DNA of 64,000 bases, from assembly GCF_901000735.1 (NCBI RefSeq), contig NC_081547.1:11453156-11517155 (forward strand), read 5' to 3'. Position numbers and translations under genes: made by a program. This stretch comes from Corylus avellana. Taxonomy: Eukaryota; Streptophyta; Magnoliopsida; Fagales; Betulaceae. Shown here piece by piece: positions 11,640 through 41,755 of this stretch; within the stretch, counting starts at the first letter, position 1, and every line of letters starts with the position of its first letter. Under the pieces are notes generated by a model, which made no database searches, was not told the origin of the DNA, and saw only the letters and a list, made by a program, of their open reading frames with translations.

Positions 11640-12791
11640 AATACAACGAAACTCCACCTTGCTGAATACCCAGCTCCCTGACTAACCTTGTAAGTCACAA
11701 AGCTTCCTTTGCAACCTCAGCCACTGCCATGCACTCTGCCTTAGTTGTGGACATCGCAATCGTGGACTGGATCATAGACCTCCAACATATGAGTCCTCTT
11801 GCAAGAATGAAAACATAACCCGTGGTCGACTTCCTGTCATCCAAATCCCCTACATAATCTGCATCTACATACTCGACAATTGATAAATCACTTTTCTGTC
11901 TGACAAAGGTGATGTCATACTCTGTAGTACCTTTCAAGTATCTAAAAATCCATTTGACTACATCCTAGTGCTGTCTCCTTGGATTTGCCATGTACTTGCT
12001 CACCACACTAACTACATGAGCCAATTTTGGCCTGGTACATACCATAACATACATCAGCCATCCCACTGCACTAGCATATGGGACCTTAGACATGTCTTCA
12101 GTTTCTTCAACTGTCTTTGGATACTGTGAGGTAAACAAATAGAAGTGATTCGCCAAAAGCGTACTCATCGATTTCGCATTCTCCATGCGAAATCTCTCCA
12201 ACACCTTTTTCACGTAGCTGGCCAGAGATAGCCACAATTTCTTGGCATCCATGCCCCTACGAATCTCCATCTCAAGAATTTTCTTGGCTGTGCCCAAATC
12301 CTTCATATCAAATTCTCTACTCAACAAAACTTTCAGTTTGTTAACCTCCATTATACTCTTAGCTGCAATAAGCATATCATCTACGTACAGTACCAGAAAA
12401 ATAAATGAGCCATCATCAAGGCTCCTCACATAAACACAACAGTTATACTCACATCTCTTGTAGCCAATTCTGATCATGTAGAAGTCAAACCGCTTATACC
12501 ACTGCCTTGGAGACTACTTCAACCCATAAAGCGACTTCTTCAATTTACAGACCAAGTGCCCCTGTCCAGGTTGATTGAACCCTTCTGGCTACTCAATGTA
12601 AATCTACTCCTTCAAATCAAGTGGAGAAAAGTTGTCTTCACATCCATGTGCTCCAATGCCATGAGATAATGAGCTACCAACGCCAATACCACTTTGATGG
12701 AAGTATGTCTGACCACTAGGAAAAATATTTCCTCATAATCATCCCCTTTCTACTATGAATAACCATTTGCTACTAGGCGAGCCTTGAACTT
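11640..12791 (-). pseudogene. Copia pol fragment: reverse transcriptase and RNase H
   Basis: The minus-strand frame 11965-12477 contains the copia RT signature VLYVDDMLIA. Upstream (12480-12791) lie the earlier RT motifs, including FKARLVANGYS just before the solo-LTR insertion. RNase H follows at 11695-11937 with YVDADYVGDLDDRKSTTGYVF, which supplies the first catalytic Asp, and STTKAECMA, where the family has a Glu-bearing STTEAEYMA. Stop codons at the RT/RNase H junction and after KEAL make it non-functional. These enzymes would copy element RNA into DNA in cytoplasmic particles. Confidence 0.88.
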
Positions 12792-14261
12792 TGTTTTGCC
12801 AAATACTACCTAAATTAATAGATAATATTTAGTACGTTTTATTCACAAGTGCACAAGATCAAACGATAGTATAGCAGACAAATACGAGATCATTCCCATG
12901 AGGATTGGTAAATTATGTTTAGAAGTAAATTCCTATTTAATTAAAAGATAAAATTCAATTGTTACGGTTTAATTTAATAAAATAAAAGATAAACAAAAAC
13001 TAAAAAGGATTAGGGTTTTGATATCCACCACTAATTATATTAAGCTAATATAACAATATGTCAATGCTTTGATCATGTTATGCATATCTAATGTTTGTCA
13101 ACCTAAGGGCATGGGTGTCTACTCCTTAAGCTATTGATTTCCTTAAGTAACGAATTAGGATGGGTGTCTATTCTAATTCTTTTCTTTCTTAAAGGATTTA
13201 GCATGAGTGTCTACTAAGTTGTTCTTTAAGAAAGCATAAAACTGTGGAAATGGACAAACACATGAGGCCTAGGGCATGGGTGTCTACTCCCGATTCCCCA
13301 TGTTGATTAACTCAAGAATCGTGGTATTGATTCTTTTGTTACTTATGTTAAACCCAGGACTCGGTCATCCAAATTGATTTAACTAACTAGTACATACCAC
13401 ATGCATATGTTGGCCAAACAGACACATATGAGGAATTCATGAAAGCAAGTATTAGTCAAGTTAAATAGCACAACAAGATCATCACAAAGGCGCCAATATT
13501 GAAATATTAATTAAACATAACTAGGGCTTCAATCTAGCCCTAAATAAAATATAAACTACATAATAAAAATAAAAGGTAAAAGAGAAGAAAAACCCAAACT
13601 CCTCTTGATTCAGCCTTTAGTTCCTTTCCAGAGCTTGTGCCTTTTTTCTCCACACTTATTCCTAGAGGCTAAGAGGTCTATTTATAGGGCTTAGGAGAGT
13701 CGTAGAAGCCCTAGTAATCCTAGAAATTTCGGAGATTTAAGTCCAAGTCCAATTAGGATAAAGAAAACCTAAGTCCAAATCGAAATAGGATTCGCCCAAA
13801 ATTGCGGTCTCATCTTGTAGGGCGATTTTGGCCTTACGATACTCCGAATTGGGAAAATTATTATAACAATAATTTGTACAATTTTGAGTTAGCTTTCCAA
13901 TGCCGCTTGAATCACCTCAATCGGATATTTGAGATGGAAGTTATGGTCAAAATACCGAGAGGTATGCAGAATCCAATTTTGCTTCTAATCCGATTTTGAC
14001 TCCAATTTGAGAAATTCCGAATTAATCATTTCCTTTATTTGATTAAACTGAACCATGATTGGCTAAGCTTAACCATATCTTCTAGGTCTTCCCAATTTGC
14101 CCTTTAAGCTTGGAATTTTTCCAGAAACACTTTCTTTTCTTCCAAAAACCTATAAAACAAAGAAAATACAAAAAAGAAGTAAAATGGCATGAATTAACTA
14201 AAACTAAAGGATTAAAACATGTAAGTTAAGGGCTAAAAATATGAACATTTGGCACTTAACA
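12792..14261 (-). mobile_element. Solo LTR of an Athila-like element, perfect 5-bp TSD
   Basis: The 1470-bp sequence starts and ends with TG/CA in reverse orientation. It is flanked by AACTT at 12787-12791 and 14262-14266. It is homologous to the LTR of element A (15009-16338) read on the opposite strand: shared ends around TTAAGTGC/AATATG and GGTA-TATTT, and the shared 'gggcatgggtgtctactcc' phrases. No internal region remains, so it arose by LTR-LTR recombination. Unlike elements A and B it has no TGCGATCGAGCGCA-type words. Confidence 0.92.
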
Positions 14262-15008
14262 AACTTTCCCCCCCATTTTTCTAATATTGTTTCATTTTTC
14301 TTGAACACCCATTTGCACCCTATCGTCCTCTTCCTCTCTGGAAGCTTCACCAAATCCCACATCTAGTTTTTATGCAGAGACTCCATCTTTTCAGCCATAG
14401 CACCCACCCATCTGCTCTTCTCTTGGTTATTGACAGCCTCTTGAAAAGTAGTAGGATCTCCACTGCTGATGACTAGAGTATAAGAAGGCATGTCTTCAAA
14501 ATCGTACCTGGTTGGTGGCCTAATAGTGCGTCTAGGCCTGTTTGTGGCTATAGTGTCATGCTCTTTAACTCCTGAAGTAGAGGTCTCTATAGCCTGAGAA
14601 GCATTCTCCTGCACAGGAGTCTTTAACTCCACCTGCACCACCTTCTTATCACTGTTACTGCTTTCTGGCACCTGTTGCTCTTTTACCTTGAGTACTCTTC
14701 TACATGGAATTTTTACCACGTCTCTACTGATCACAACCTTGTTTGCCTTCGGATCCCAAAACTTGTAACCCTTAGCCCCTTTCCCATATCCGAGAAAGAC
14801 ACTGTCTAGACTTTGGATCAAGCTTCAATTGCTCTTCACTATGTATGTGAATATAGGCTGGACAACCAAATACTCTCAAACCAGAGTATTCTACCTCATT
14901 ATTTGTCCACACCTCCTTTGCAACTTTCCCATGTAGTGCTACCCTCGGGGACCTGTTGATCAACTAGCATGCCATACTCACTGCATTTGCCCAGAAAATC
15001 TTTGCAAG
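14262..15008 (-). pseudogene. Copia pol fragment: integrase C-terminus and start of RT
   Basis: The minus-strand frames 14772-14963 and 14363-14821 read LINRSPRVALHGKVAKEVW, VFGCPAYIHI, and VFLGYGKGAKGYKFWDP, the conserved copia integrase C-terminal region. An acidic/Ser-rich linker follows, then RPPTRYDFEDMPSY and EAVNNQEKSRWVGAMAEKMESL, the start of the RT domain. A frameshift near 14800 and a TAG shortly after the Athila-A junction disable it. The plus-left flank continues at 12791 across the solo LTR. Confidence 0.85.
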
Positions 15009-16338
15009 TGATAAGTGCTAAAATATTCATATTTTCAGCCCTTAACTTGCATGTTTTATTCCTTTGGTTTTACTTAATTAGGCCATTTTAATTTCTTTTT
15101 GTGTTTTTTTTATGTTTTTATAGTCTTTTGGAAGAAAATGAAGTAAAACTGGGTTATTTGGGCTCAAAAAGAGAAGATGGAAAAAATTGGAACTCCCTGA
15201 CACTGCGATCAATCGCAGGTACCTGCGATCGAGTGCAATACCCGAGAGGACATAGCACAAAGCAAGCCAGGAACGATCGAGCGCATGCCAGAAGAAGGAT
15301 CAATCGCAGACCTGCGATCGAGCGCACCGTGCACAGGAGACAAACCAAGGTGGCGGCTAAGATGTCCCTATTTCCATATTAGGGTTTTCCAACTCCCAAT
15401 TGTAACAGGATTGAAACCCTACGAGTTCCCTAGGGTTCCAAGGACTTCTAAAGCCTATAAATAGACTCTTAAGCCTTTAGAATAGGGAGAGGTTTTTGCA
15501 AGGAGAGAATAGGAGCTTGTCAAGTTCAAGTCTCGGGTTTATTCTTTTCCTTTCTTTTCTTTTATTTTATGAAGATGTTTAACATCAACTTTATGTGTAG
15601 CTAATTTAATTAGTAGGGCTTGATTGAAGCCCTAGTTATGTTTTGTTAATATTTCAATATTGGCGCCTTTGTGATGATCTTGTTATGCTATTTAACTTGA
15701 TTAATATCTGCTTGCATGAATTCCTCATATGTGTATGCCTGATCAACATATGCATGTGGTATGGACTAGTTAGTTAAATCAATTTGAATGGCCGAGTCCT
15801 GGGTTTAACATAAGTAACAAAAGAAATCCACAGCAGGTTCTTGGGTTAATCAACATGGGGAACTGGGAGTATATGCCATGCCCTAGGCCTCGTGTGTTTG
15901 TCGATTTCCATAGAACATATGCTTTCCTAAGGAACAACTTAGTATAAATCATGCTAAATCCCTTATGAATGAAAAGAGTTAGAGTAGATGCCATGCCTAA
16001 CTTGTTGCTTAGGGAAATCTATAGTTTTAGGAGTATACGCCATGCCCTAAGGTTGACAAACATTAGATATGCATAACCTCATCAAAGCATTGGCATATTG
16101 TTATATTAACTAAATATAATTAGTGGTGGATATCAAAGCCCTACCCTTTATTATCATCACTTCAAAAATCAATATTTGTTTTGTTTTTGCTTATGGAATC
16201 TATTTTTAAACATAAATTCAGCAATCCTCATGGGAATGATCCTGTACTTGCACCATATACTACTATGTTGACCTTATGCACTTGCAGGTAAAACGTACAA
16301 ATTATTATCTATTAATTTAGGTAATATTTTGCACGACA
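15009..16338 (+). repeat. Left LTR of element A
   Basis: It is 1330 bp long, opening TGATAAGTGC and ending TTGCACGACA. It has palindromic words at 15204-15326 (U3), a TATA box at 15456 and a long, variably repeated 'atgCCatgCCcta' region near 15870-16050. It is close to the right LTR by eye, with scattered substitutions and small indels. Confidence 0.92.
15456..15463 (+). promoter_or_regulatory. TATA box in element A left LTR
   Basis: TATAAATA precedes the conserved GACTCTTAAGCCTT phrase and matches 22271-22278 in the right LTR. It marks the U3/R boundary region. Confidence 0.65.
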
Positions 16339-16344
16339 AGTTTT

Positions 16345-16362
16345 TGGCACCGTTGCCGGGGA
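16345..16362 (+). promoter_or_regulatory. Primer binding site of element A
   Basis: TGGCACCGTTGCCGGGGA lies six bases after the LTR end. Athila/Tat-group elements usually have TGGCGCCGTTGCCGGGGA, generally attributed to tRNA-Asp. Here the CG has become CA. Confidence 0.8.
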
Positions 16363-16516
16363 TTGCGGCGAATTTTGTTTAAATTTATCTTCCTTTAAGT
16401 TTTGTTATTTTAATTTAGTATTAGCAAAAAAAAAAAAAAAAATCATCACAAATAATTTCTTGTTTTCCCTAACTTTTCTGTTTTCTGTTTTAGGTTGCAA
16501 ATTGACATTCTGTGAG

Positions 16517-16586
16517 TGCGATCAATCGTCAGCCAAGTGTGATCGAGCGCACTGCGATCGAACGCACAAACCTGTGATCGAGCTTA
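16517..16586. repeat. Four palindromic 14-mers in the element A leader
   Basis: Words of the TGCGATCGAGCGCA type start at 16517, 16538, 16553 and 16573. The first pair is 21 bp apart and the last pair 20 bp. They lie between the primer binding site and the gag start. Confidence 0.85.
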
Positions 16587-16649
16587 GTTCCAGGGAGCTT
16601 CTGGACCAAGTAGTACTGAAGGTGCCTAACTGAAGAAGCAATCAAGTTC

Positions 16650-18120
16650 ATGCAAGGTCGTCGATCTCAAGCCTCACCCGTTTTTCCCCTCGATCCTGAA
16701 ATTGAGCGGACAATTCGACAAAGACCTAGTGACAAAGAAGGAGAAGAAGAAGTTGAAATGGAAGATTTGCAAGAAAATCCAATTGGGCCAAGACCCCTGG
16801 AAGCAAATCCACCACGAGTGAGGAGACCAATGAAGCAAGCATACGTACCAACAAACCTCCATCAACCCTCATGCATAGCATACCAACCGGAGGTGGATGG
16901 CAGCAATTATATTTCTCTCCAAATTCTCAATGCATTGACTCACTTTAGAGGCACAGCTACTGAGGATCCCAACTTGCATCTTAAGGAATTCTTTGACTTA
17001 TGGAAGCTGCAACATGTCCAAGGCCTAACTCCAGAGAGACTCAGGTTAGTCCTCTTTCCTTTTTCCTTGAAAGATAATGCTAAACTGTGGTACAATTCCT
17101 TGCCTGCAGAGTCCATTCATACTTGGGAAGAATTGACCACCAAGTTTCTGAAGAGGTTTTTCCTAGCCCAGAAGACAAAGCAACTTAAAAGGGAACTTTA
17201 AATGTTCCAACAGCGAGACGGAGATTTGTTCTTTGAAGCCTGGGACCACTTCAATTCCTTACTTCTAAAGTGCCCACACCACAATATTCCTCAAGATGAG
17301 CAGGTACAAATTTTCTATGAAGGATTAGATGATACTAACAAAGGGATGGTTGATTCAGCTTGCGGAGGAACACTTATGGAAAGGAGTAGTGAGCAAGCTG
17401 TGGAACTTTTTGAGACATTCAGTGAGCACTCACAGCAATTCTGTTCAAGAGAAAGGAGAGGAGTCAAAAGCAAGGGCATGTATGAAGTGAATCTCAATGG
17501 GGGATCAACCAATCAGTTGGCTGCAGTAGAAAAGAAATTGGATATGCTCGTCAAGGCCATGACTGTTCAGAAAATTTCACCTCTGCAACAAGACACTCCA
17601 ATCCAGGTATGTGCTATTTGTGCCCATTTAGATCACACCATTGAGAAGTGTCCGTTACCTTCTTGTGCAGAACAAGAAGAGGTGAATTTTGTGGGACAAA
17701 ACAATTATCCCCACAAGAACAACCCATACTCCAATACTTACAATCCAAGTTGGCGTAACCATCCAAATTTTTCCTGGAGTAATAATCAAGGACAACAGAA
17801 AGGGCCCTAACAAGCAAGTCAACCAGCTCAAGAGCCAAAGATGAACCAACTGGAGAACAAGATACATAACCTGGTGACTTCACAACAGCAATTCATGGCT
17901 GATCAAAAACATGTCAATACAAAGACTGAGTAAGCCATACAAAAGCTGGAAGTGCAAATGGGTCAGATGGCAAAGGAGCTGAGTGAGAGGAAGCAGGGAG
18001 AATTCCCAGCTCAAACAGTACCTAACCTAGGCAATCAATAGCGGCTGAAGGTAGCTACAGTTCTAAGAGGTCCTACTCCTACAAGAGCACTTGAGCCAAA
18101 TTCTGAAGAGCTCAAGTGCA
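16650..18120 (+). pseudogene. Athila-type gag of element A
   Basis: The gag starts at the ATG at 16650 (MQGRRSQ) and stays in one frame to about 18120, with TAA at 17199, TAA at 17808, TAA at 17931 and TAG at 18039. It contains the retrotransposon gag core (LKEFFDLWKLQHVQGLTPER... LWYNSLPAESIHTWEEL... FFEAWDHFNSLLLKCPHH). A zinc knuckle CAICAHLDHTIEKC of exact CX2CX4HX4C spacing follows, then the Athila signature YSNTYNPSWRNHPNFSW and a coiled-coil-like tail. Gag forms the cytoplasmic particle and binds genomic RNA through the knuckle. All breaks are in-frame stops with no frameshift seen, so decay is mild. No protease follows. Confidence 0.88.
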
Positions 18121-18362
18121 GCTCTTCACACTAGGAGTCCTACAGTCACCAGTAGACGCATTTGAGCAGGCAAGAACCTCAAGTGCATCTACTCACAACA
18201 GTGGTATTGATGCCACTAAGAGGGCGGTAACATTTTCTCTCTTGTCTTTTCATCTTACTTTCTTTCCTTCACATATGTTTTGATTATCCTTGATGTTTTG
18301 ACCTTTGCTTTTCTTTTGTTTGATTTTTCAAAAAAAAAAAAAAAAAAAAATTATTCTGGTAC

Positions 18363-18531
18363 TACGATCGATCGCAGGGTACTTACGATCGAGCGCAGTT
18401 ACCGAAAGGTAGCTCGATACTTTCTGTTAGTGCGATCGAACGCACCTTAGGTGCGATCGAGTGCACTATGCCCAGGCATGCGTACCTCTGACCGAATGCA
18501 ATCGAACGCACCTGGAGTGCGATCGAGTGCA
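18363..18531. repeat. Three pairs of palindromic 14-mers before element A ORF2
   Basis: Words start at 18363 and 18384, 18431 and 18452, and 18497 and 18518. Each pair is exactly 21 bp apart. The middle pair folds into a hairpin with about 17-base arms (14 paired) and a TTA loop. The words lie in the spacer where pol would normally end. Confidence 0.88.
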
Positions 18532-18879
18532 CTCGGGCAGCAAGGCCTGCGAACTATTTAGGTCACTTTTTCCCCATGGCCCACAACTTTCTCCTGGCGC
18601 CGTACAGACCCTCTCCAAGCCCCCCACCTCCAGCACTCGTCTTCCTCCCATCTTACGCCTCATTTTCACAAATCTCACCACTCCACCACCACATAAGTCA
18701 TTCTCCGGCCACCATACCACCTTCTTTCACCGAAAACCACCTCATACATCCCACTCTCACCCCCAACCCTCAATATCTCCAAACACTCATCCAACCTCCA
18801 TTTTGTTTAATTTTTCTCGCAATTGTGGGTGTTTACCCACCCACATTGCCTCTATGTTGGAATTTTTTGCATATTTGCA

Positions 18880-18881
18880 GG
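18880..18881 (+). promoter_or_regulatory. Predicted splice acceptor before element A ORF2
   Basis: A long pyrimidine-rich tract (18590-18840) leads to TTTTTTGCATATTTGCAG|GGAG. Element B has the same arrangement at 35671. This suggests that ORF2 is expressed from a spliced subgenomic RNA. Inferred only. Confidence 0.45.
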
Positions 18882-18970
18882 GAGTTTGGAACATCCTAGG
18901 TTGGAGTTGTCTTTGTGGTCAACCAGAGTGCACACTACTTGTTCGACAAAAGTCCCCAACCAAGTTCCAA

Positions 18971-20047
18971 ATGCCTAGAACACGTGCTTCATCTTCCAGA
19001 GGGTCTGGAGCTCATGTTATTTCTCCCCCATCAGCTTTTGAAAAGCGGGAGCTGCTGTTTGAAACCACTTTCACCATAAGAGAAGATTTTCAACACAATG
19101 AGGCGACTCAATGGGCGGTCACCGAGTTTAGGCGAAGGGGCCTCAAGAAGCTCTTTAAACCGGTCACCTCTACCGTTTATCGGAAGTTGGTCGTGGAATT
19201 CTATGCCATGCTTTCCCATGACTGTGACAACCCAGCCACTCTCTCCTCAAATGTACAAGGCTAAATTGTTCATGTAACGAGGGCCGACATAGCCCCCGCC
19301 TTGCAGTGCAATGATGAGCATCCTCTCGAAACTGCAAATCTTGCCGAGCAATCGGCCCGATATTATATGGCGGAGATCATTGAAGACATGTGCGAAGGGA
19401 ACTATGCAGATGCCCACCACAATGCTGGCAGCCGGTCCAAGTTGCCGCGGAGGTTATGGTTCGTAGACTCGGTGCTTCACCGCAATGCATTCCCCTTGGG
19501 ACACAAAACTCAAAGGCGTGATCAATTCTTTCAAACTCTCTACGCCTTTCATAAGGATGTATGGTACTCCATTCCTGACATCATTTGGAACCAAATCCAT
19601 AAATTTTTGAATAGAGTGCACATTGGGGGAGCTGAGTCCACACATTCATGGGGATTGCCTTTCCCCTATTTGATCACATATATTTTGCGGAAAAAGTGCA
19701 TTAAGGGCACCGCAGCTGATGAGCTAGTCACCACCACTCCATTATTTGGCATTCGCCAATGGAACAAGAGCTGCTCCCATATGCCCCGGGCACATCTAGA
19801 GGAAGAGGAAGAAGCAGATGAGGTCGAGCCAATGGCTGAAGATGAACCGGCAGTTGAGCCGGTAGATGAAGATGAGGAGGAGACCTTAATTGATGTTCGA
19901 GCCATCCAATACCGATCCCTTTGTGAACAAATGAACGGTCTTCGGAGGGAGCTAGTTGATCAAAGAAGGAAGGCTAGGGAAGATAAGGTTGCCATGGACA
20001 AATGCTTAGCTGCCCTAGAAGCATTGATGCGATCCATCCTAACCTGA
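18971..20047 (+). pseudogene. Downstream ORF (env position) of element A
   Basis: The ATG at 18971 (MPRTRASSS) follows the predicted acceptor. One in-frame TAA at 19262-19264 interrupts about 359 codons. The first half (ELLFETTFTIREDF..., FRRRGLKKLF, VVEFYAML) and the second half (LPRRLWFVDSVLHRNAFPLGHKTQRRDQFFQTLYAF) match the plant 'putative plant transposon protein' domain seen downstream of pol in Athila-type elements, and are clearly related to 35764-36900 in element B. An acidic stretch (LEEEEEADEVEPMAEDEPAVEPVDEDEEE, here summarised) and a coiled-coil-like C-terminus follow. No signal peptide or membrane segment is obvious, so an envelope role is not supported by the sequence. Function unknown. 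Confidence 0.75.
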
Positions 20048-20270
20048 TTACCACCACCACCTGGAGCATCTACTTCTGGACAACATTGAGAGGGGACCAC
20101 AGTCTGGTTGAAGACGTAAAACTTAGCGCTCATGGGAGGCACCCCATAGCATATCCTTTTGTTTTATTGTTTGTTTTATATTATTTTGTTTCTGTTTGTT
20201 TGTGTTTTATTTTTTTTATTTTTTATTTTTTGTATTTCAAGTATTTTCTCACATTTTTACATTCTGTTAT

Positions 20271-20374
20271 TGTGATCGATCGTACCTTGCGTGCGATCGG
20301 ACGCAGATTTCCATTTGGCATTTCATCACATTCTGTTAGTGCGATCGAACGCACCATGCGTGCGATCGAGCGCA
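20271..20374. repeat. Two pairs of palindromic 14-mers after element A ORF2
   Basis: Words start at 20271 and 20292, and at 20340 and 20361, each pair 21 bp apart. The second pair forms a hairpin with about 16-bp arms and a CATGC loop. Confidence 0.88.
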
Positions 20375-20479
20375 CTTGGCAGCATCCCATAGTTAGTTTT
20401 TTTTTTTTTTGTTCTGTTCAATTTTTATTTCGTTTTAGTTTTGTTCATTTTTACTTGTTTGTGTGTTTTATTATTTTGC

Positions 20480-21791
20480 AGGGACAAGTGTGCTTCAATT
20501 CAAGTTTGGGGTGTGCTACGAGCCATGCTTTCCAAGACTATGTCCACCATCTCTCGGGTACATTCATTCCTTTACTTAGACATATTGGGAACAATGTGTC
20601 ATTTAAGTTTGGAGGTATGGGAAACACACACACTTTGTCCCAGTTTTACTTTGTTTATGTTGAAAAAAAAAAAAAAAATCAAAAAGAAGAAAAAATATAT
20701 GCATGTTCATGTTTGTCTTAAAATTTTGGTTGATCTTAAAAATTGTGATTTGATTTCATTGGTGAGCTTAAAATTTTGAACACATGATTTAATAATTGAG
20801 TCTTTCAGTTTGGTTACTTGCTTAGGACAGTTGAGAATTCACATGTTTGATCTAATCTTATACAAGCACATTAGTACATAATTTGTGAGGTATAACATGA
20901 AGGTTGATGTGTGTGTTTCTATGTCTTAAGTGAAACTGGATGATTTATTAGATGGATACCTTGGTATATATTTATGTGAAAAAAAAAAAAAAGAATAAGA
21001 GAAAAAAATTAATGATCATTGATAAGCTTTTCACTGAGTAACTAGACTTCTTGCCTCAAAGCATTGAGTGTTCACGTCAAAAGTTGAAGAATTTTGACTT
21101 GGTTAATGTCATGGTTAGTTTGGTTTCGTAGCCTTTTTGACTTGAGTTAGTAAGTCCTAGGGGTGTCTCTACACCTAATACCCTAAAACCATCTGGTTTG
21201 GGAGTCATTGACTTAACACTCGTTACATGGGTCAATTAGAAAGCTTAAGGGAATCAAGCATTGCACAACCTGACAAAGCAAAAAAAAAAAAAGAAGAAGA
21301 AAGAGAAAAATATGCCATTGTTGTTCATTCTAATAGGGATTTCAGTGAACTTTGAAATATTGAGACATTGCACATTAGAAACAATTGGAAGCGTCATATT
21401 TATGTGCTAGTTCACTTTACCCTATTTTCAAACTTGTGATGTCTTAGCATGTCTTTTGTCAGTAATTAAATTTTAAAATTGCAATTCATTGTGAAGATGG
21501 AGTTTATTTTTTTAAGCTTGCTAATGAATAAGAATCATGGTTTTGAGTGATACCTTAATTTTCGGATAGCATAAACTCTTGCATGATGTTTGTGGGTAAC
21601 ATTTCTGAAAAACCCTCACGAGACTCCACTCGTCCACTAGGGAATTCCTAGGGGTTTAAAAGACTTGTTGCATACGCTAAATGCAATCGTACATCCCACG
21701 AAAGATGGATTTATCTCTTGTTTTCTGTTTTTCCATTCTTGTTTTTAGTTCTGTATTGCTAAGGGACTAGCAATATGTAAGTTTGGGGGTG
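20480..21791 (+). other. Conserved 3' non-coding block and polypurine tracts of element A
   Basis: A second acceptor-like ATTTTGCAG|GGAC ends at about 20481. It is followed by an internal polypurine-like CAAGTTTGGGGTGTG (20501-20515). The block 21130-21260 (AGTTAGTAAGTCCT... ACATGGGTCAAT) and 21600-21720 (ACCCTCACGAGACTCCACTCG... ACATCCCACGAAAGATG) is strongly conserved with 37440-38030 in element B. The functional polypurine tract AAGTTTGGGGGTG ends at 21791, directly before the right LTR. Confidence 0.75.
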
Positions 21792-23150
21792 TGATAAGTG
21801 CTAAAATATTCATATTTTCAGCCCTTAACTTGCATGTTTTATTCCTTTGGTTTTACTTAATTAGGCCATTTTAATTCCTTTTTGTGTTTTTTTATGTTTT
21901 TACAGGCTTTTGGAAGAAAATGAAGTAAAACTGAGTGATTTGGGGTCAAAGAGAGAAGATGAGAAAAATTGGAACTCCCCGACACTGCGATCAATTGCAG
22001 GGTACCTGCGATCGAGCGCAGTACCCGAGAGGACATAGCACAAAGCAAGCCAGGAACGATCGAGCGCATGCCAGAAGAAGGATCAATCGCGGACCTGGGA
22101 TCGAGCGCACACAGGTTGCGATCGAGCGCACCCGTGCACAGGAGACAGACCAAGGTGGCAGCTAAGATGTCCCTATTTCCATATTAGGGTTTTCCAACTC
22201 CCAATTGTAATAGGATTGAAACCCTACAAAATCCATAGGGTTTACTACTTTTCCAAGGACTTCTAAAACCTATAAATAGACTCTTAAGCCTTCAGAATAG
22301 GGAGAGGTTTTTGCAAGGAGAGAATAGGAGCTTGTCAAGTTCAAGTCTCAGGTTTATTCTTTTCCTTTCTTTTATTTTATTTTATGAATGTTTAACATCA
22401 ACTTTATGTGTAGCTAATTTAATTAGTAGGGCTTGATTGAAGCCCTAGTTATGTTTTGTTAATATTTCAACATTAGCGCCTTGGTGATGATCTTGTTGTG
22501 CTATTTAACTTGATTAATACCTGCTTGCATGAATTCTTCATATGTGTGTGCCTGCTCAACATATGCATGTGGTATGGACTAGTTAGTTAAATCAATTTGG
22601 ATGGCCGAGTCCTGGGTTTAACATAAGTAACAAAAGAAATCCACGCCGGGTTCTTAGGTTAATCAACATGGGGAACCGGGAGTATATGCCATGCCCTAGG
22701 CCTCGTGTGTTTGTCAATTTCCATAGAACATATGCTTTCCTAAGGAACAACTTAGTATAAATCATGTTAAATCCTTAGGAATGAAAAGAGTTAGAGTAGA
22801 TGCCATGCCTAACTTGTTGCTTAGGGAAATCTATAGCTTTAGGAGTATACGACTTGCCCTAAGGTTGACAAACATTAGATATGCATAACCTGATCAAAGC
22901 ATTGGCATATTGTTATATTAGCTACATATAATTAGTGGTGGATATCAAATCCCTACCCTTTATTGTCATCACTTGAAAAATCAATCTTTGTTTTGCTTTT
23001 GCTTAAGGAATCTATTTTTAAACATAAATTCAGCAATCCTCGTGGGAATGATCTTGTACTTGCACCATATACTACTATGTTAACCTTGTGCACTTGTAGG
23101 TAAAACGTAAAAATTATTATCTATTAATTTAGGTACTATTTTGCACAACA
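21792..23150 (+). repeat. Right LTR of element A
   Basis: This is the partner of 15009-16338. It has palindromic words at 21986, 22007, 22056, 22096 and 22117 and a TATA box at 22271. The pair 22096/22117 is present here, whereas the left LTR has only one word at the matching place, so word number varies between the two LTRs. Confidence 0.92.
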
Positions 23151-28143: not shown

Positions 28144-29230
28144 TGATAAGCGCCGAATGTTGCACATTCAAGCCCTTAAATTTACATATGTTAATTCCTT
28201 AGCATTGTTATTTGTTTGATTTTGTTTTGTTTTTGTGTTTCAAGTCTTATTTGACAAACCATTGAAAATTGGGCTTAAAAGGGCAAAAAGCTGAGCATTC
28301 TGGATCTAGGATCAAGCGCAGCTACTCCTGAGCTCGAGCGCATCTGCGCTCAAGAGTCTGCGGCCAGGGATCGAGCGCATGCCTACGCTCGTGCACATAA
28401 CAGCTAGGCTCGAGCGCACAAAACTTAGGATCGAGCGCACTCGGGCATGTATTGCACGACAGCAATCCTTTTCTAGCGTGGATTTGGTTTTCAGTCTCCC
28501 AATTGGTCTAGGAGACTGACCTCCAGTTTTCTGAGGGTTTCTAGGGTTTTTAGGGTTTGCCTAATCCCTATAAATAGGGCTCTAAAGATTGCTACAATTG
28601 ATTTTTGTTCTTCGTATTAAATGCAATTGTTCTTAAATTCCAACTCAATATTAGTAAAATTCTTATCTTGTCTTAGAAATTATTTTACTATTATTGAACT
28701 CAAATCATTCTTATTTTCTGTGAGTATAAGAATGATGGTTATACAATGGTTCTTAATTGACATGCAATCAATAGGGTTAGATAGACCATACCTAGAAAAG
28801 ACGGATCGTACTACACCCTAGTTTAGTGTAATTTAGGTAGACGATCTGTGCCAACCGAAGATGGGTTATGCTATTCCATTGATTGTATGAAATTATTTTC
28901 ATGTGTTTTCTTGTTTAAATTATAACATGCATAGAATGAATTGCTAGAATTAAATATGGTTAACCATTGATGTGCGGATAGTGGTGAAGTCAATACCCTA
29001 CTCTCTCTTTCTCATATATTTACTCTTTTTATTTTCATGCACTTTAAAATTATACATAACAAATCATTCTCTTTTAAATTAAGTTAACTTTAATCTTTTA
29101 AATTTTGATAATTAAACTCCTGCAGTCCTTAAGGTTCGACACCCTCAATACAGCCGTATCCTACAAAGATTCGTCCTATTGCGAGTGGTTATTTTTAATT
29201 GATATTTTTTGTCACAAAAATACCACATCA
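28144..29230 (+). repeat. Left LTR of element B, with internal deletion
   Basis: It is 1087 bp against 1270 bp in the right LTR. About 183 bp just after the TATA region are missing between two GATTG copies. Palindromic words of the TGCGCTCGAGCGCA type lie at 28307-28439, with starts 28384, 28405 and 28426 exactly 21 bp apart. Confidence 0.93.
28569..28576 (+). promoter_or_regulatory. TATA box in element B left LTR
   Basis: TATAAATA in CCCTATAAATAGGGC, a perfect inverted context, is also present at 38510 in the right LTR. Confidence 0.65.
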
Positions 29231-29235
29231 ATTTT

Positions 29236-29253
29236 TGGTGCCGTTGCCGGGGA
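29236..29253 (+). promoter_or_regulatory. Primer binding site of element B
   Basis: TGGTGCCGTTGCCGGGGA begins five bases after the LTR end. It differs from the usual Athila form at the same CpG as in element A, but here CG has become TG. Confidence 0.8.
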
Positions 29254-29404
29254 TTGTTTAACGGTTTCATTATCTAAATTTAAGGTTGATTTTAGGTTAA
29301 TAATTTATTTTTCTGTTTTAAGTTGCTAATTTTAATTCTGTTGTGTGTTTGGTTTTTATTTTTTTAGAATTTGAAAATAGGTCCATAGCTACCTTCTCTG
29401 TGAC

Positions 29405-29550
29405 TGCAATTGAGCGCAGGTCGCGTGTGATCGAGCGCACAGACGCATTCCAGCAGGAATCAAGCCAGCAGCGCTCGAGCTTTCCCCTCTTGCGCTCGCA
29501 CCCATCTGTAGCAGTACGCTCGAGCGCACCCTGCCGTGCAATCGAGCGCA
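29405..29550. repeat. Three pairs of palindromic words in the element B leader
   Basis: Words start at 29405 and 29426 (21 bp), 29470 and 29491 (21 bp), and 29515 and 29537 (22 bp). They lie between the PBS and gag, as in element A. Confidence 0.85.
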
Positions 29551-29645
29551 CTTGCGGCAACCTGCATCCAAAACCCCAACACATCTAAGGGCCGTTTGTG
29601 AGCTTTACTTTTCTATTTTAGCTTAGTTTTTCTTTATTTTCTGTT

Positions 29646-31160
29646 TTGTTTATGCTCGGTCGCCGTTCTTTGTCTTTTCCATTAATTTCTTGCAACCTTG
29701 AAATTGAACGCACTTTTAGACAAATTAGATCCCAAAGGACCCCTAATTTGCTAGAAGAGCGATCTACTGAGACCATGGGAGACGATAACCACGTAGCTTT
29801 GCAAGACCACTATCTTCCTACCACTTAAACTACTCCCACATGTCTCCAGCTGCCGGAAATTACGGCAACCCATTATGAAATTAAGCCCAGCACTAGACGA
29901 AGTTTACCTTCGTTCCTAGGGCTTAGCACTGAGAATCCTTATGACTTCCTTAGTGATCTCGAAGCAATTTGTGATACCACTAACATGAATGGATTCACTG
30001 AGGACGCCCTAAGGATGCGTCTTTTTCCTTTCCCCCTCAAGGAAAAAGCCAAACATTGGTTCCAGTCCTTAACACTCAACTCTATCACTTCTTGGGCTCA
30101 ATTGCAGCAAGAATTTCTTAAGAAGTATTTTCCTATAGGAATGACCAATTACACTAGGAGAGCTATCATTACCTTCTCCCAATATGAGGGAGAAGATTTC
30201 CATGAGACTTGGGATAGGCTGCAGAGCTTGCTTCGATCATGTCCACACCACGCTGTCCCGAAATGGCAGCTAGTGCAGTGTTTTTTTATGATGGCCTGAT
30301 GGAGTCCAATAGAAAAATGGTAGATGCATCATGTGGGGGAACTTCATGTTAAAAAGCGAAGATGAAGCATGGGCTATGTTTGAAAATTTGAGTAACAATT
30401 CTCTTCAATAGGTTTCCACCAGACGAAGAGCACCAGCACCTAAAGCACTTAAGACAGAGTTTGTATGAAGCAGGCCAGCCCCCAAACATGGCCAACCAAG
30501 TAGTTGAGTCTATCACCAAGAAGCTAGACCAATGGATGACTGCTGGTTTTGCTCCTAATACTGCTCACACGCACACACCACCTGAACCATGCTCATTCTG
30601 TTCTAGTCCTATGCATCATGTAAATAACTACCCTGTTACTGGAAATTATACTGATATTGTTAATGAGCAGGTTAATGCAGCATTCTCCAAACCAGGTAAA
30701 GATCCATACTCCAATACCTACAATCCCGGGTGGAGAAATCATCCAAATTTCTCATGGAAGAATACACATTCGGGCAATTCAGCCCCAAGGCCACACAATC
30801 AAGCTTAATCCAACAGGCAGCCCTATCAACCTCATTCCACTTACCGGCCTCCACAGCAGCAATACCAGGCCGCAGATTCTAATTTTGAGGATCGGGCGCT
30901 TAAAATGATGAGTGAGCTGGCGGACGAGATTAAGCAGACGGTTAAATCTCAAGAGGAAATAGTAAACTCACACTCCCAATCCATTGCCAAGCTACAAGCT
31001 CAAGTCGGACAACTTGCCAACACCTTCAATAGAAGGGACGAAGGAAAGCTTTCGAGTCAGTCAGTGGTAAATCCTAAGGGGCATTACATGGTAAATGATG
31101 GCACTTCGTACCATCAGCAAGTTCAAGCCATCACCACCTAGAGAAGCGGGAGAATAGTTG
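29646..31160 (+). pseudogene. Athila-type gag of element B
   Basis: Gag homology begins at about 29646 (ISCNLEIERTFRQIR) and runs through NPYDFLSDLEAICDT, LRMRLFPFPLKEKAKHWFQS and FHETWDRLQSLLRSCPHH. An extra base in a T-run near 30283 shifts the frame. The zinc knuckle region reads CSFCSSPMHHVNNYP: the first two Cys and the His are in place but the last Cys is Tyr, so it could not bind zinc normally. Then YSNTYNPGWRNHPNFSW and a coiled-coil-like segment with AKLQAQVGQLANTF. Stop codons occur near 29826, 30410, 30806 and 31139. It would package element RNA. Confidence 0.85.
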
Positions 31161-31210
31161 ACAATCATGTAGAGGAGAAGAAGGATGAGCACACGGAGGT
31201 TGTACAGAAT

Positions 31211-33920
31211 TTGCAGAATGATAAATGTAAGCAAGTAAGTAATGAGGCTTCGTCATCAATAGCTCCCACTCTAGAGATTCCATATGAGCCACGGGCCCCC
31301 TTCCCAGAACGTCTCAAGGAACCGTCTCACTTTGGGAAACAAGGAGAGAAAATACAAGGAATGATGGAGATGTTCAAACAGGTAAAAATCAATCTCCCCC
31401 TTCTTGATGCCATCGCACAAGTGCCTGCCTATGCCAAGTTCCTTAAAGACTTGTGTACTCAAAAGAGGATGACCGAAAATAACATCCCCAAGAAAGTCCT
31501 TCTGACTGAGCAAGTGAGTTCCCTAATTAAGCACAACATTCCTCCGAAGTTCAAGGACCCCGGGGCCCCTACAATTTCATGCATCATTGAAAAAAGGGAG
31601 ATTGATAAGACACTCTCAGATCTGGGGGCTGGTGTGAATTTACTTCCCTATTTGGTATATCAGCAGCTCAGCCTAGGGGAGCTGAAGCCCACCACATTGA
31701 TTCTGCAACTAGTTGATTGGTCGATTAAGAAGCCTAGAGGGATTGTAGAAGATGTGATAATCCAGGTGGATAAATTTTCCTTCCTAGTCGACTTTATAGT
31801 GCTTGACACCGAGCTTGTGCCCAATCCTGATAAGTTGATTCCTGTCATCCTTGGGCCCCCTTTCTTAGCCACAGCAAATGCATGTATCAATTGTCGAACT
31901 GAAGTCATGGAGATATCATTTGGCAATATGAAGGTTCGATTGAATATCTTTACTGCATTTCAGCATGCTCCTGATCAGAATGAGTGTTTCTTTTTGGATA
32001 ACATTGAAGAATATGAAGAAACCTGCTTGAATTACTTCGACTGTGATAAGTTCAATACCAACCAGTACATCAAAGAGGTTCAAGATTTGCTAGAAATAGC
32101 CGCAAGTGCAGATTTCCATCCATGGAGAGTAGTAAAGGCGCCCCTACCTATAACATCGAGCACTCCTCATGTTCCTTCTCTATTGTCTCCACCGAAACTT
32201 GAGTTGAAGCCCCTGCTAGCAAAGCTCAAGTATGCATTTCTAGGATCTAACAACACTTTACCGGTCATCATTGCTTCCAACCTTCAAAAGGACCAAGAGG
32301 ATAGTCTGCTAGCAATGTTAAAGGAATATAAAGAAGCCATTGGATGGACCGCGACAGATTTGAAAGGCATCGACCCCTCTATCTGTATGCACCGAATCCA
32401 TTTGGAAGAAGATGCTCGACCTTCCAGTGAGGCACAGCGCCGATTGAATCCCAACATGAAAGAGGTGGTGATGAAAGAGGTAGTCAAGTTACTTGATGCA
32501 TGCATCATCTACCCTATCTCAGATAGCAAATGGGTGAGCCCCATTCAAGTGGTTCCAAAGAAATCCGGCATCACCGTCGTTGAGAATTCTGTTGGAGAGT
32601 TGGTTCTACAGCACACAACTAAGGGATGGCGTGTTTGCATCGACTACCGGAAGCTCAATTCCCATACCCGGACGGATCACTTCCCGCTCCCATTCATTGA
32701 TCAAATTTTGGAGCGTCTTGCTGGCCAAAGCTACTATTGCTTCCTAGATGGCTATTTAAGGTATAATCAGGTTGCAGTTGATCCCCAAGACCAAAATAAG
32801 ACGACGTTTACCTGTCCATTCGATACCTTTGCTTACCGACGCATGCCCTTCGGCTTATGCAATGCACCTGCCACATTCTAGAGATGTATGATGTCTATCT
32901 TCTCCGACATGGTGGAGAAATTTTTGGAGGTATTTAAGGATGATTTTTCTGTTTTTGGATCTTCTTTTGATAAATGTCTCCATAATCTTTCACTTGTGCT
33001 TCAATGTTGCAAAGAAACTAACCTGATTTTAAGTTGGGAGAAGAGCCACTTCATGGTGTAGGAAGGTATAGTTTTGGGCCATATAGTGTCCAAAAGAGGT
33101 GTTGAGGTGGACCGGGCTAAAGCGGAGCTAATTGAAAATCTACCGCCGCCCACTTCAGTAAAGCAAATCCGTTCCTTCCTAGGATATGCCGGCTTCTATC
33201 GCCATTTTATCAAGGACTTCAGTAAAATTGCAAGGCCCTTATGTAACTTGCTTGCTAAGGACGCCCCTTTTTACTTTGATGAAGCATGTCACGAGGCATT
33301 TCAGAAGCTACGGTCTCTGTTATCTTCTCCCCCCATCATGCAGCCTCCTGACTGGTCTTTACCCTTTGAAATCATGTGTAATGCGTCTGACTATGTTGTG
33401 GGTGCAGTTTTGGGACAACGGGTAGGCAAGCTTCCTCATGTCATTTATTATGCTAGCAAGACACTAATGGATGCTTAAGTCAATTACACAACCACCGAGA
33501 AAGAATTGCTAGCTGTGGTCTTTGCTCTTGATTAATTCCGTTCATATCTTCTGGGATCAAAGGTTATCATTTTTTCTGATCATGCTACTCTACAACATTT
33601 GCTGGCCAAGAAGGAAACAAAGCCACGATTGATCTGCTGGATATTACTTCTACAAGAATTTGATATTGAGATTCGGGACAAGAAGGGTACTTAGAATGTT
33701 GTTGCCGACCATCTGTCACAAATTTTATTTGAGACACCCCAGCCGGTTCCTGTTCATGACTCGTTCCCAGATGAGCAACTATTGAAATCACTCCGAAAAA
33801 TCTGCCATGGTATGCCGATATTGTCAATTATCTAGCTACAGGATGGATTCCTTCTCATTGGTCTAAGCAAGATAAGGACCGCTTCTTCAAGCAAGTTCGA
33901 TTCTATTTTTGGGAAGATCA
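31211..33920 (+). pseudogene. Athila-type pol of element B: protease, RT, RNase H
   Basis: One frame from 31211 covers the aspartic protease (LSDLGAGVNLLP with the catalytic Asp; VILGPPFLATANA) and the reverse transcriptase (WRVCIDYRKLNSHTR, FPLPFIDQILERLAG, YRRMPFGLCNAPATF). A TAG at 32879 interrupts, and the same frame continues with FKDDFSVFG, the catalytic DD box where Met is usual before DD. A second TAG precedes EGIVLGHIVSKRGVEVD. RNase H opens NASDYVVGAVLGQ, with Asn where the family has the first catalytic Asp. Stops at about 33476, 33531 and 33692 and a frameshift near 33790 follow. The enzymes process gag-pol and copy element RNA. Confidence 0.9.
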
Positions 33921-33924
33921 GGAG

Positions 33925-35108
33925 TTGTTCAAGTATTGTGCTGATCAGATCATCCGACGCTGTGTCCCTGAGAGTGAATTTTCCAGTATTTTCACATTCT
34001 GTCACTCTCTAGCTTGTGGAGGACATTTCAGTGCCAAGAAGACAACATCCAAAGTTCTACAATGCGGATTCACATGGCCCACCTTGTTCAAAAATGCCTA
34101 TGAATTCTGTCGAGCTTGTGAGAGATGTCAATACCTAGGAGCTATGTCTCGGAGGGACATGATGCCATTGAACCCCATCCTTATTGTCGAGATTTTTGAT
34201 GTCTAGGGTATTGACTTTATGAGACCCTTCCCACCGTCTTGTGGATATTAGTACATTTTGGTAGGAGTAGATTATGTCTCTAAGTGGGTAGAAGCCATTG
34301 CCACAAAGACCAATGATCACAAGGTTGTGGTGAAGATCCTCCAAGCTAACATTTTCAGCTAATTTGGTACTCCTCGGGCTATCATCAGTGATGAAGGTAG
34401 ACACTTTTGCAACCGGTTTTTCAAAGCCTTGCTTCTCAAATACTACGTCACACATAAGGTAGCCACTCCGTACCATCCTCAAACAAATGGCCAAGTGGAA
34501 GTTTCTAACCAGGAGATTAAGCATATTCTAGAGAAGACGATTAGGCCAGACCGAAAGGATTGGTCCTTGCGCCTCAATGATGCATTATGGGCCTACCGCA
34601 CAGCTTACAAAACCCCCATTGGAATGTCTCCCTATAGGCTGGTATATGGCAAGGCGTGTCACTTCCCTGTGGAATTAGAACATAAGGCTCTATGGGCAAT
34701 TAAGCAGTTCAATTTCGACATGCAAGCAGCCGGTCCCACCGGAAACTTCAGTTGACAGAGTTGGAGGAGCTGCGGCGGGATGCATATGATAGTGATCGCC
34801 TTTATAAGGAGCGGACTAAGGCTTTTCATGACAAGCATATCCTGCCCAAGACATTTGTGCCGGACCAGCAAGAATGGCTCTTCAATTCCAAACTCCGGTT
34901 TTTCCATGGGAAACTCCACTCCAGATGGGACAGTCCATTCATAGTCACCTCGGTGTCGCCCCATGGCGCCGTCGAATTGCGGGACCCAAAGGATGGCACT
35001 CTATTCAAGGTCAGCGGTCAAAGGTTGAAGCCCTACATCCAGAACTTCGAGCCAAGTATAGACGTGGAATCTGTCGATTTGACGGATCCCGTCTACCTTT
35101 TTGATTGA
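33925..35108 (+). pseudogene. Athila-type integrase of element B
   Basis: It starts with an HHCC zinc-binding region (CHSLACGGH... FCRACERCQ). The catalytic core has [13 protein letters not shown] and [11 protein letters not shown], giving the Asp, Asp and Glu of the triad. The tail has [20 protein letters not shown], then after a frameshift at about 34750 KAFHDKHILPKTFVPDQQEWLF and PFIVTSVSPHGAVELRD. TAG and TAA stops at about 34204, 34249 and 34360 disable it. Integrase would insert the DNA copy; no chromodomain is seen, as expected for Athila. Confidence 0.9.
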
Positions 35109-35121
35109 GGCACTGGCACTC

Positions 35122-35300
35122 TAGGCTCGAGCGCACCCACTGTGCGCTCGATCTCAGAACACAGGCCTGCGCACACACCGACACACACATGCACGAATGC
35201 GCTTGAGCACACCTTATGGAGCGCTCGAGCGTACACCCGCCCATCCATCCCCCCTCTGCACAAGTACAATCGAGCGCACTCTGGTGCCCACTCGAGCGCA
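35122..35300. repeat. Palindromic word cluster before element B ORF2
   Basis: Words start at 35122 and 35143 (21 bp), 35198 and 35220 (22 bp), and 35265 and 35287 (22 bp). The first pair, GGCTCGAGCGCAC/GTGCGCTCGATC, forms a hairpin with a short loop. Confidence 0.85.
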
Positions 35301-35669
35301 CTCGTTCAGAGGTCTCACATGACCTTTTCAGGTCACAGGTCATTTTTTTTCCTCTATTTCTTCCCCCACCCCCGCAGCCCCACTTCTCTCCCCCACACCA
35401 CTGTACTCAACCAATGCCACCTACTCACCACCACCAATCACCACCCCATCACCGCCGCACCCCCTACGGCCACCGAACCACCTAACGCCGCCACCACCTT
35501 CCTTCCCCCACTCTCTTTCTCCCTCTCCATCCCCTCTTCTCTCCTCTATTTCCCATTCTCCCAAACACCCCACTGTACCCATTTTTCCCCATTTTTTTGT
35601 GGATACAGCAGTCCGTGGGTGCTCCATCACACACGGACTGCTGTGTGTTAGGTTTTTACTTCTACTTGC

Positions 35670-35671
35670 AG
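35670..35671 (+). promoter_or_regulatory. Predicted splice acceptor before element B ORF2
   Basis: A pyrimidine-rich stretch (35345-35600) leads to TTTTTACTTCTACTTGCAG|GGGG, at the same place relative to the ORF as in element A. Confidence 0.45.
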
Positions 35672-35763
35672 GGGGTTAGGCAGCCGGGTACAGTGGTTCT
35701 CTACCACTTCACTTTTGAGGTGCCCACCAGGTGTTCGACAAAAAGCCTCAACGAAGCCACATC

Positions 35764-36921: not shown

Positions 36922-36959
36922 TAGGTCAGGTACTCCTATCCCTTGCACTGCTTTATTGT

Positions 36960-41349: not shown

Positions 41350-41755
41350 GTTAAAGGCTAAGATTTCTTTTCCAAAATCTTAAGGCCATAAATGGGACAC
41401 CTATCCCACTACTAAAATAATAATAAAATATTATTTATAATTAAAATAAAAAATAAAAAAAATAAGGGGTGGTTGGCCACCCCATTTTTGCCCTAGGAGG
41501 TGGCCGACCGGTTTGGGGTGGCTTTGGCAGGACAAAAATGGGGTGGTTAGATCTTTTTTTTTTTTTTTTTTTTGATTTGGCCCTTGGGGTGGCTGCCAAA
41601 CCTCCTCGGGCAAAAAAGGGTTAGCCAGCCACTTTTTTTTAAAAAAATTATTTTATTTTTTAATTATTTTAAATTATAAATAATATTTTATTATTATTTT
41701 AGTAGTGAGACATGTGTCCCATTTGAGACTTTAGAATTTCTGAAAAGAAATTCAA
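41350..41755. mobile_element. TIR element with GGGGTGGC core
   Basis: The arms are inverted repeats: ATGGGACACCTATCCCACTA with AATAATAATAAAATATT after it (41393-41440), and the reverse complement at about 41670-41735. Shorter matching ends continue to GATTTCTTTTC near 41362. The centre (41465-41640) is GGGGTGGTTGGCCACCCC-type DNA between A and T tracts. A partly matching direct phrase, GTATCC-GTTAAAGG, occurs on both sides (41345 and 41768), but it does not abut the arms, so the target duplication is unresolved. Confidence 0.65.

What the first reader, a model, noticed from the sequence alone, without database searches (positions are those of the whole stretch)
15204..22130. Paired palindromic 14-mers at 21-bp spacing throughout the non-coding parts of Athila-type element A
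Words of form TGCGATCGAKCGCA (near or perfect palindromes) start at 18363/18384, 18431/18452, 18497/18518, 20271/20292, 20340/20361, 16517/16538, 21986/22007 and 22096/22117. All of these pairs are exactly 21 bp apart; 15204/15224 and 16553/16573 are 20 apart. They occur in U3, leader, pre-ORF2 spacer and post-ORF2 region, but not in gag or ORF2. Each word has several CpGs in a genome where methylated CpG decays, so retention suggests recent spread or selection. 21 bp is two helical turns, which would suit a dimeric DNA-binding protein. The related solo LTR at 12792 has none, so the array is lineage-specific. Several pairs also fold into hairpins, so an RNA role (dimerisation or packaging) is a rival idea.
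Basis: partly seen in the sequence, partly recalled or inferred. Interest (0 to 1): 0.88.

Follow-up and report, generated by a model that had tools for sequence, protein, structure and literature searches.

The report
Paired palindrome arrays in plant retrotransposons
Thousands of copies of a short palindromic DNA word, often set in pairs two helical turns apart, sit in the control regions of a plant retrotransposon lineage, and they look like docking sites for a protein that may help these elements resist silencing.

Summary
In the window, 41 words (up to 2 mismatches) occur where 0.06 are expected; all 41 lie in two Athila-type elements, A (gag and ORF2, no pol) and B (gag-pol and ORF2). 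Genome-wide there are 22,286 sites (up to 1 mismatch) against 26 for the backwards control. In 20 further regions chosen for words, 39 of 107 neighbouring distances are exactly 21 bp.

Words mostly share one orientation, often end about 140 bp before TATA, form CpG-rich cassettes, and lie before ORF2 at similar distances in 5 of 5 ORF2 copies seen. Between copies they change less than flanks; between LTRs of one insertion they do not. No covariation supports an RNA hairpin.

The parts
15009..23150 (+). Element A, non-autonomous Athila-type element (gag and ORF2, no pol); target duplication matches in 4 of 5 bases (gCAAG/aCAAG)
15009..16338 (+). 5' LTR of A
15204..15326 (+). U3 word cassette of A, 5' LTR; one word-plus-linker unit fewer than the 3' LTR (22-nt gap in the alignment)
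16517..16586 (+). Leader word cassette of A (distances 21, 15, 20 bp)
16620..17810 (+). gag of A, in two open pieces (PF03732; second piece below the cut-off)
18363..18531 (+). Pre-ORF2 word cassette of A: three 21-bp pairs; last word starts 453 bp before ORF2
18971..20047 (+). ORF2 of A, interrupted by a stop at 19262-19264; its pieces match PF20167 only weakly or not at all, but align with relatives that carry it; pieces searched apart
20271..20374 (+). Post-ORF2 word cassette of A: two 21-bp pairs
21792..23150 (+). 3' LTR of A
21986..22130 (+). U3 word cassette of A, 3' LTR; ends 140 bp before TATAAATA at 22271
28144..39354 (+). Element B, Athila-type element with gag, pol (RVT_1) and broken ORF2; 5-bp target duplication AGCAC
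28307..28439 (+). U3 word cassette of B, 5' LTR
29405..29550 (+). Leader word cassette of B
35122..35300 (+). Pre-ORF2 word cassette of B: three pairs (21, 22, 22 bp)
35764..36921 (+). ORF2 region of B, broken; ends approximate; PF20167 match below the cut-off; 37-42% identical to the ORF2 pieces of A
38248..38380 (+). U3 word cassette of B, 3' LTR: seven words; ends 129 bp before TATAAATA at 38510
12790..14266 (-). Related solo LTR; U3 flanks align to A but the word-bearing module is replaced and has no words

Best explanation
The words are arrayed, oriented DNA-binding sites in the control cassettes of an Athila lineage in a hazelnut-like genome: U3 about 140 bp before TATA, the leader, and the flanks of ORF2. 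The protein that binds them is most likely the element's own ORF2 product, a nuclear DNA-binding protein of VANC-like fold, which by occupying these CpG-rich cassettes counteracts silencing and drives transcription of the LTR and perhaps of ORF2. Pairs 21/22 bp apart would put two binding units on the same face of the helix. Shown: word arrays, spacing, orientation bias, TATA distance, CpG richness, conservation between copies, gain and loss of units, genome-wide abundance. Inferred: binding by any protein, binding by ORF2, nuclear action, anti-silencing, dimer contact.
For: Words and spacing exceed chance in the window and in 20 further regions: in clusters of 3 or more words, 47 of 104 distances are 20-22 bp; null mean 9.1, maximum 20 in 500 trials. 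Genome: 22,286 against 26 control. Orientation against TATA: 51 of 57 asymmetric words agree; the cluster end is 138-141 bp from TATA in 11 of 21 clusters (some clusters are copies of one another). CpG observed/expected 1.0-1.7 in seven cassettes against 0.23-0.68 in five other stretches of the elements. Five of 5 ORF2 copies seen (A, B, L044, L054, L058) have words upstream, the last starting 453-492 bp before ORF2; three also have four words downstream at matching places. Words are more alike than flanks in 10 of 10 upstream and 2 of 3 downstream comparisons among these copies.

Confidence: 0.4

Rival explanations
1. The words are sites for a host transcription factor, an enhancer captured by the LTR, as suggested for Sirevirus repeated motifs. 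ORF2 has an unrelated job (env-like or structural).
For: U3 position about 140 bp before TATA; words in regions without ORF2 in the fetched 10 kb, 17 of 20; Sirevirus motifs sit in LTRs and before ENV, form CpG islands, and their authors recovered mainly stress-related factor sites (sections 9, 10, 19 of PMC2829016).
Against: Words also flank ORF2 and lie in the leader, which a plain LTR enhancer does not need; the 21/22-bp layout recurs in elements whose ORF2 is only 37-42% identical. No host factor could be named; no motif library was available.
Confidence: 0.33
2. RNA role: pairs fold into hairpins in the genomic RNA for packaging or dimerisation.
For: RNA fold z of -4.0 and -5.3 (A spacer), -3.3 (A post), -4.0 (B spacer); orientation is mostly fixed.
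Against: U3 and leader cassettes fold little better than shuffles (z -0.8 to -1.3); the reverse strand of the A spacer scores -6.0. No covariation within words; pair partners barely fit better than non-partners (12.2 against 11.7 of 16 positions, P 0.10).
Confidence: 0.07
3. Neutral tandem repeats: slippage spreads a word with no function, and inheritance within the lineage explains the copies.
For: One-unit length change between A's LTRs; tandem pair array in L052; after insertion words change as fast as other LTR sites (8 of 168 against 98 of 2237).
Against: Among close copies words stay 91-95% alike where flanks are 79-80%; cassettes recur in separate places of one element and at similar distances from TATA and ORF2; the word is kept in A and B, whose flanks are 50-57% alike in forced alignments.
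Confidence: 0.12
4. The arrays are hot spots for host small-RNA silencing, kept as recurring siRNA templates or decoys.
For: RdDM targets overlap VANC targets in VANDAL non-coding regions (passages of PMC10398659).
Against: No small-RNA data here; silencing alone would select against keeping the words. An Arabidopsis study reports no genome-wide link between DCL3-RdDM targets and palindromes or inverted repeats, data not shown (passage of PMC4977677).
Confidence: 0.08

Closest known systems
Sirevirus repeated motifs (RM boxes) of Ty1/copia elements (PMC2829016; abstract and sections 9, 10, 19 read)
   Same: Short palindromes, many copies, clustered in the LTR upstream of TATA and again upstream of the env-like gene; clusters make CpG islands; function unproven.
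   Different: Sireviruses are Ty1/copia, this is an Athila-type element; RM core is CGG-CCG in 12 of the 13 listed, here GATCGA/CTCGAG; RM copies after ENV are rare (2 of 79 linker copies), here A, L044 and L054 have four after ORF2; 21/22-bp pairing and leader cassettes are not in the sections I read.
VANDAL transposons with VANC anti-silencing proteins (PMC5735166 passages and sections 10-11; PMC10398659 passages)
   Same: Element-encoded protein and same-orientation short motif arrays in non-coding parts of the element; tandem gain and loss; the predicted ORF2 fold best matches VANC21 bound to DNA.
   Different: VANDAL is a Mutator-like DNA transposon (recalled); VANC21 carries DUF1985, ORF2 relatives carry PF20167 with no significant sequence link; the VANC21 motif YAGTATTAY is not palindromic; no binding or demethylation data here.
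Athila lineage of Ty3/gypsy elements (PMC1142308, PMC11728184; passages read)
   Same: gag-pol followed by a 3' ORF; PF20167 has been reported in a sunflower Athila 3' ORF.
   Different: A lacks pol. My ten paper searches (listed in the report, capped listings) showed no description of these word arrays in Athila.
Plant mobile domain proteins MAIL1/MAIN (PMC5418596, PMC7156037; passages read)
   Same: Retroelement-related domain in proteins that act in silencing; linked to a promoter DNA motif; DUF1985 relatives show weak PMD hits (5 of 31 scanned, best E 3.3e-5).
   Different: PMD is not among the 25 families shown of 34 for ORF2 relatives.

Membership tests
Sirevirus RM boxes | Palindromic repeated motif clustered in U3 upstream of TATA | tested here: met
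Sirevirus RM boxes | Extra copies just upstream of the env-like 3' ORF | tested here: met
   5 of 5 ORF2 copies seen, three of them in regions chosen for words
Sirevirus RM boxes | Clusters form CpG islands | tested here: met
   CpG o/e 1.0-1.7 against 0.23-0.68; stretches measured are 86-191 bp, shorter than the 400 bp average reported, and no island caller was run
Sirevirus RM boxes | CGG-CCG core | tested here: not met
   Core is (A/C)TCGA(G/T/A)
Sirevirus RM boxes | Carrier is Ty1/copia | tested here: not met
   Carrier has PF03732 gag, RVT_1 (PF00078) and a PF20167-type 3' ORF; gypsy placement is inferred from these
VANC/VANDAL anti-silencing system | Same-orientation short motif arrays in non-coding parts | tested here: met
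   22 of 23 asymmetric words in the window (read); 51 of 57 in fetched regions
VANC/VANDAL anti-silencing system | Arrays gain and lose units | tested here: met
VANC/VANDAL anti-silencing system | Encoded protein with DUF1985 | tested here: not met
   Four ORF2 relatives list PF20167 and not DUF1985; not among 25 of 34 families shown for 100 relatives; hhalign P 0.19-0.36
VANC/VANDAL anti-silencing system | Protein fold of VANC21 | tested here: inconclusive
VANC/VANDAL anti-silencing system | Protein binds the motif and lowers methylation | not testable with these tools
   no binding or methylation data
VANC/VANDAL anti-silencing system | Carrier is a Mutator-like DNA transposon | tested here: not met
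   LTRs, gag, RVT_1
Athila lineage | gag-pol followed by a 3' ORF with PF20167 | tested here: met
   B: PF03732 and RVT_1 above cut-off, PF20167 below it; B ORF2 aligns with A ORF2, whose relatives reach the PF20167 cut-off
Athila lineage | Phylogenetic placement of reverse transcriptase | not tested
   no tree was built

The most novel reading that the evidence does not exclude
Athila retrotransposons run a VANC-type anti-silencing system: ORF2, long filed as env-like, is a sequence-specific DNA-binding protein whose target is the paired palindrome array in its own LTR, leader and ORF2 flanks, and word variants and ORF2 clades have evolved together. Non-autonomous relatives keep words to borrow the protein.
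Probability: 0.35. Interest if true: 0.9.

Novelty: new variant of a known kind. Interest (0 to 1): 0.72.

Why it matters
Athila elements are common in flowering plants and the job of their third gene is unknown (both recalled). If ORF2 binds these arrays, sequence-specific anti-silencing, known from VANDAL DNA transposons, would also exist in retrotransposons; it could explain the clade-specific methylation drops reported for sunflower Athila LTRs, and it gives a testable protein-site pair. If the binder is a host factor, the arrays are still a set of some 22,000 regulatory-looking sites in one plant genome.

Tried and rejected
RNA hairpins: rejected as main explanation. Related DNA in viral contigs: 75 stretches matched a peptide pattern and none encodes an ORF2 relative; the half-word pair pattern hit 38 contigs that I did not analyse. 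Sequence link between ORF2 and VANC21/DUF1985: not significant. Chance-like Pfam hits (for example Trypan_PARP on acidic tails) ignored. Selection after insertion: not seen, as LTR pairs show words and other sites changing alike; non-CpG word sites had 0 of 110 changes against 84 of 2165, which I did not use. CpG retention as proof of selection: rejected. A test of ORF2-word coevolution and an unbiased ORF2 sample were planned and not done, because the genome search did not complete. 'Env-like' as ORF2's role was neither supported nor excluded.

In one search words are chosen by likeness to the pattern, which favours them; I quote the 'either' count, which is less biased; there, up to 42 word bases per pair of copies face gaps (whole units lost) and are left out. 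The 20 regions are all on C1, picked from the first 100 places listed; clusters in one region (for example three LTR clusters in L054, two in L040) are copies of one another, so counts are not independent. ORF2 starts in B and L044 are extrapolated from partial tblastn matches.
Full report
What was checked. The word TGCGMTCGAKCGCA occurs 41 times in the window with up to 2 mismatches, against a mean of 0.06 in 100 dinucleotide-preserving shuffles. All coordinates in the finding are right. All 41 words lie in two LTR elements. Element A (15009-23150) has gag (PF03732) and an ORF2 but no pol; element B (28144-39354) has gag, reverse transcriptase (RVT_1) and a broken ORF2. In both, ORF2 matches PF20167 only below the cut-off or not at all; the assignment rests on relatives of A's ORF2 that reach the cut-off and on the A-B match. 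Both elements begin TGATAAG and have a primer site of the form TGG(C/T)(A/G)CCGTTGCCGGGGA; that this is typical of Athila is recalled, not tested. B has a clean 5-bp target duplication AGCAC; A has four of five matching bases (read).

Layout. In A the words form four kinds of cassette: U3, leader, before ORF2, after ORF2. In B they form three: U3, leader, before ORF2. With one LTR counted per element there are 37 words and 30 neighbouring distances; 18 are 20-22 bp and 13 are exactly 21 bp, against a mean of 3.7 for random placement in the same spans and none of 20,000 trials as high. TCGAGCGCA is the commonest 9-mer listed in B (15 copies); in A it ties at 9 copies with two overlapping 9-mers, behind TGCGATCGA (10). 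Cassettes have CpG observed/expected of 1.0 to 1.7; gag, gag-pol, ORF2 and the rest of A's LTR 0.23 to 0.68.

The genome. The window lies at C7:11453156-11517155 of a 369,928,215-base genome in 12 contigs; with up to 1 mismatch the word has 22,286 sites and the backwards pattern 26. A's ORF2 piece is 81% identical to a Corylus avellana protein over 83% of its length, so the host is most likely hazelnut or a relative (inference). I fetched 20 regions of 10 kb on C1, picked from the first 100 places listed because they hold exact words. They contain 33 clusters of two or more words and 107 neighbouring distances: 39 are exactly 21 bp and 49 are 20-22; in clusters of three or more, 47 of 104, with a null mean of 9.1 and a maximum of 20 in 500 trials. 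Several clusters are copies of each other (LTR pairs, related insertions), so these counts are not independent. One region, L052, has 12 words with spacings alternating between 21/22 and 37 bp, so pairs themselves are tandemly amplified.

Orientation and position. The pattern is its own reverse complement, so strand calls by it are void. Positions 5 and 10 break the symmetry. Read by eye from the list, 37 words in the window give 22 forward, 1 reverse, 13 symmetric and 1 other. In the fetched regions, 21 of 33 clusters have TATAAATA on one side only within 250 bp; among their 57 asymmetric words 51 point toward it, and the cluster end lies 138-141 bp from it in 11 of the 21 (range of all 21: 86-190). 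Three of the six disagreeing words come from one post-ORF2 cluster in L044, where ORF2 runs the other way and the TATA is probably chance. In the 3' LTR of A the distance is 140 bp and in that of B 129 bp (read).

Link to ORF2. Only 3 of the 20 fetched regions hold a recognisable ORF2. With A and B that makes five copies; the others are from 37 to 85% identical to A's pieces. All five have words upstream, the last starting 453, 455, 453, 462 and 492 bp before ORF2 (A, L044, L054, L058, B; starts in L044 and B extrapolated). A, L044 and L054 also have four downstream words at 227-240, 248-261, 296-308 and 317-329 bp; L058 and B have none within 700 bp. At 3 mismatches one hit lies inside ORF2 in A and one in L054. 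Because the three outside loci came from word-bearing regions this is not an unbiased association test; that test needs a search by PF20167, which the service did not answer.

Conservation. Upstream of ORF2, words are 91-95% alike where flanks are 79-80% alike among A, L044 and L054, and words exceed flanks in all 10 pairwise comparisons of the five copies, narrowly in one (L044-B, 55 against 50%); downstream they do so in 2 of 3, the exception being A-L054 (83 against 88%). Whole units are missing in some copies and fall in gaps. Between A and B, words aligned to words are 74-80% alike, flanks 50-57%, and words aligned to non-words 29-46%. Within an insertion, the two LTRs show no such protection: words 8 of 168 changed, other sites 98 of 2237; word CpG sites 8 of 58, other CpG sites 14 of 72. 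A's 5' LTR lacks one word-plus-linker unit that its 3' LTR has. A related reverse-strand solo LTR aligns to A on both sides of the U3 core but has an unrelated stretch and no words where A has its cassette, so U3 cores seem to be swapped as modules.

RNA or DNA. Six possible pairs across the word show no covariation: 65.2% of cells pair against 65.1% after shuffling, and two pairs change on both sides against 3.6 expected (33 distinct words). The two words of a pair fit each other only slightly better than words of other pairs (12.2 against 11.7 of 16, P 0.10; 0.18 without G-U; 18 pairs). Strong predicted folds occur only beside ORF2 (z -3.3 to -5.3); U3 and leader cassettes give z of -0.8 to -1.3. 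Two reverse strands were folded: A's spacer gives -6.0 and B's U3 -1.85. This is what DNA dyads give by themselves. I therefore favour a DNA-level role.

What is in print. Sireviruses, which are Ty1/copia, have palindromic repeated motifs in the LTR before TATA and before the env-like gene, forming CpG islands (abstract and sections 9, 10, 19 of PMC2829016). The architecture here is strikingly parallel in an Athila-type element with a different core. A sunflower study reports Athila clades with reduced LTR methylation and leaves open whether Athila-encoded factors act (passages of PMC12844716). PF20167 in a sunflower Athila 3' ORF with a predicted nuclear localisation signal is reported in PMC11728184 (passages). 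Ten searches, whose listings held 4 to 20 papers each and were mostly capped, showed no paper on these arrays in Athila; two papers on VANC evolution and on Athila that I looked for were not held.

Verdict. Real, abundant, organised and conserved. It works like Sirevirus motif boxes and like VANC target arrays, and is a member of neither by tested features. Most likely DNA-binding sites; ORF2 as binder is the boldest reading that the evidence allows, at about 0.35 to 0.4.

Noticed in passing
12790-14266 (-): Solo LTR related to A whose U3 core is replaced by about 340 bp of unrelated sequence: modular U3 swapping.
   Followed up: partly
42905-44416 (+): Part of a host gene with a 2OG-Fe(II) oxygenase domain (PF13532, AlkB-type by recall) and an internal repeat of about 167 bp in three copies (43301-43776) in the same open frame.
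   Followed up: no
27323-28198 (-) and 39547-40368 (-): Long minus-strand open frames on or beside both ends of element B, which may have split one coding unit; not identified.
   Followed up: no
11965-12513, 14363-14824, 23335-23871 (-): Minus-strand open frames around element A and the solo LTR, perhaps one older element into which both inserted; not searched.
   Followed up: no
5161-5330 and 56272-56441: A 170-nt direct repeat, 79% identical, 51 kb apart.
   Followed up: no
26135-26697 and 41363-41751: Two inverted-repeat pairs (87% and 82% complementary), possible MITE-like or fold-back elements.
   Followed up: no
L052:4445-4771: Array of 12 words with spacing alternating 21/22 and 37 bp, no ORF2 found in the 10-kb region: tandem amplification of the pair unit.
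   Followed up: partly
18875-18882 and 35666-35673: TTGCAGGG after a pyrimidine-rich run lies about 90-110 bp before ORF2 in both A and B and resembles a 3' splice site; ORF2 might be made from a spliced RNA. Read by eye.
   Followed up: no
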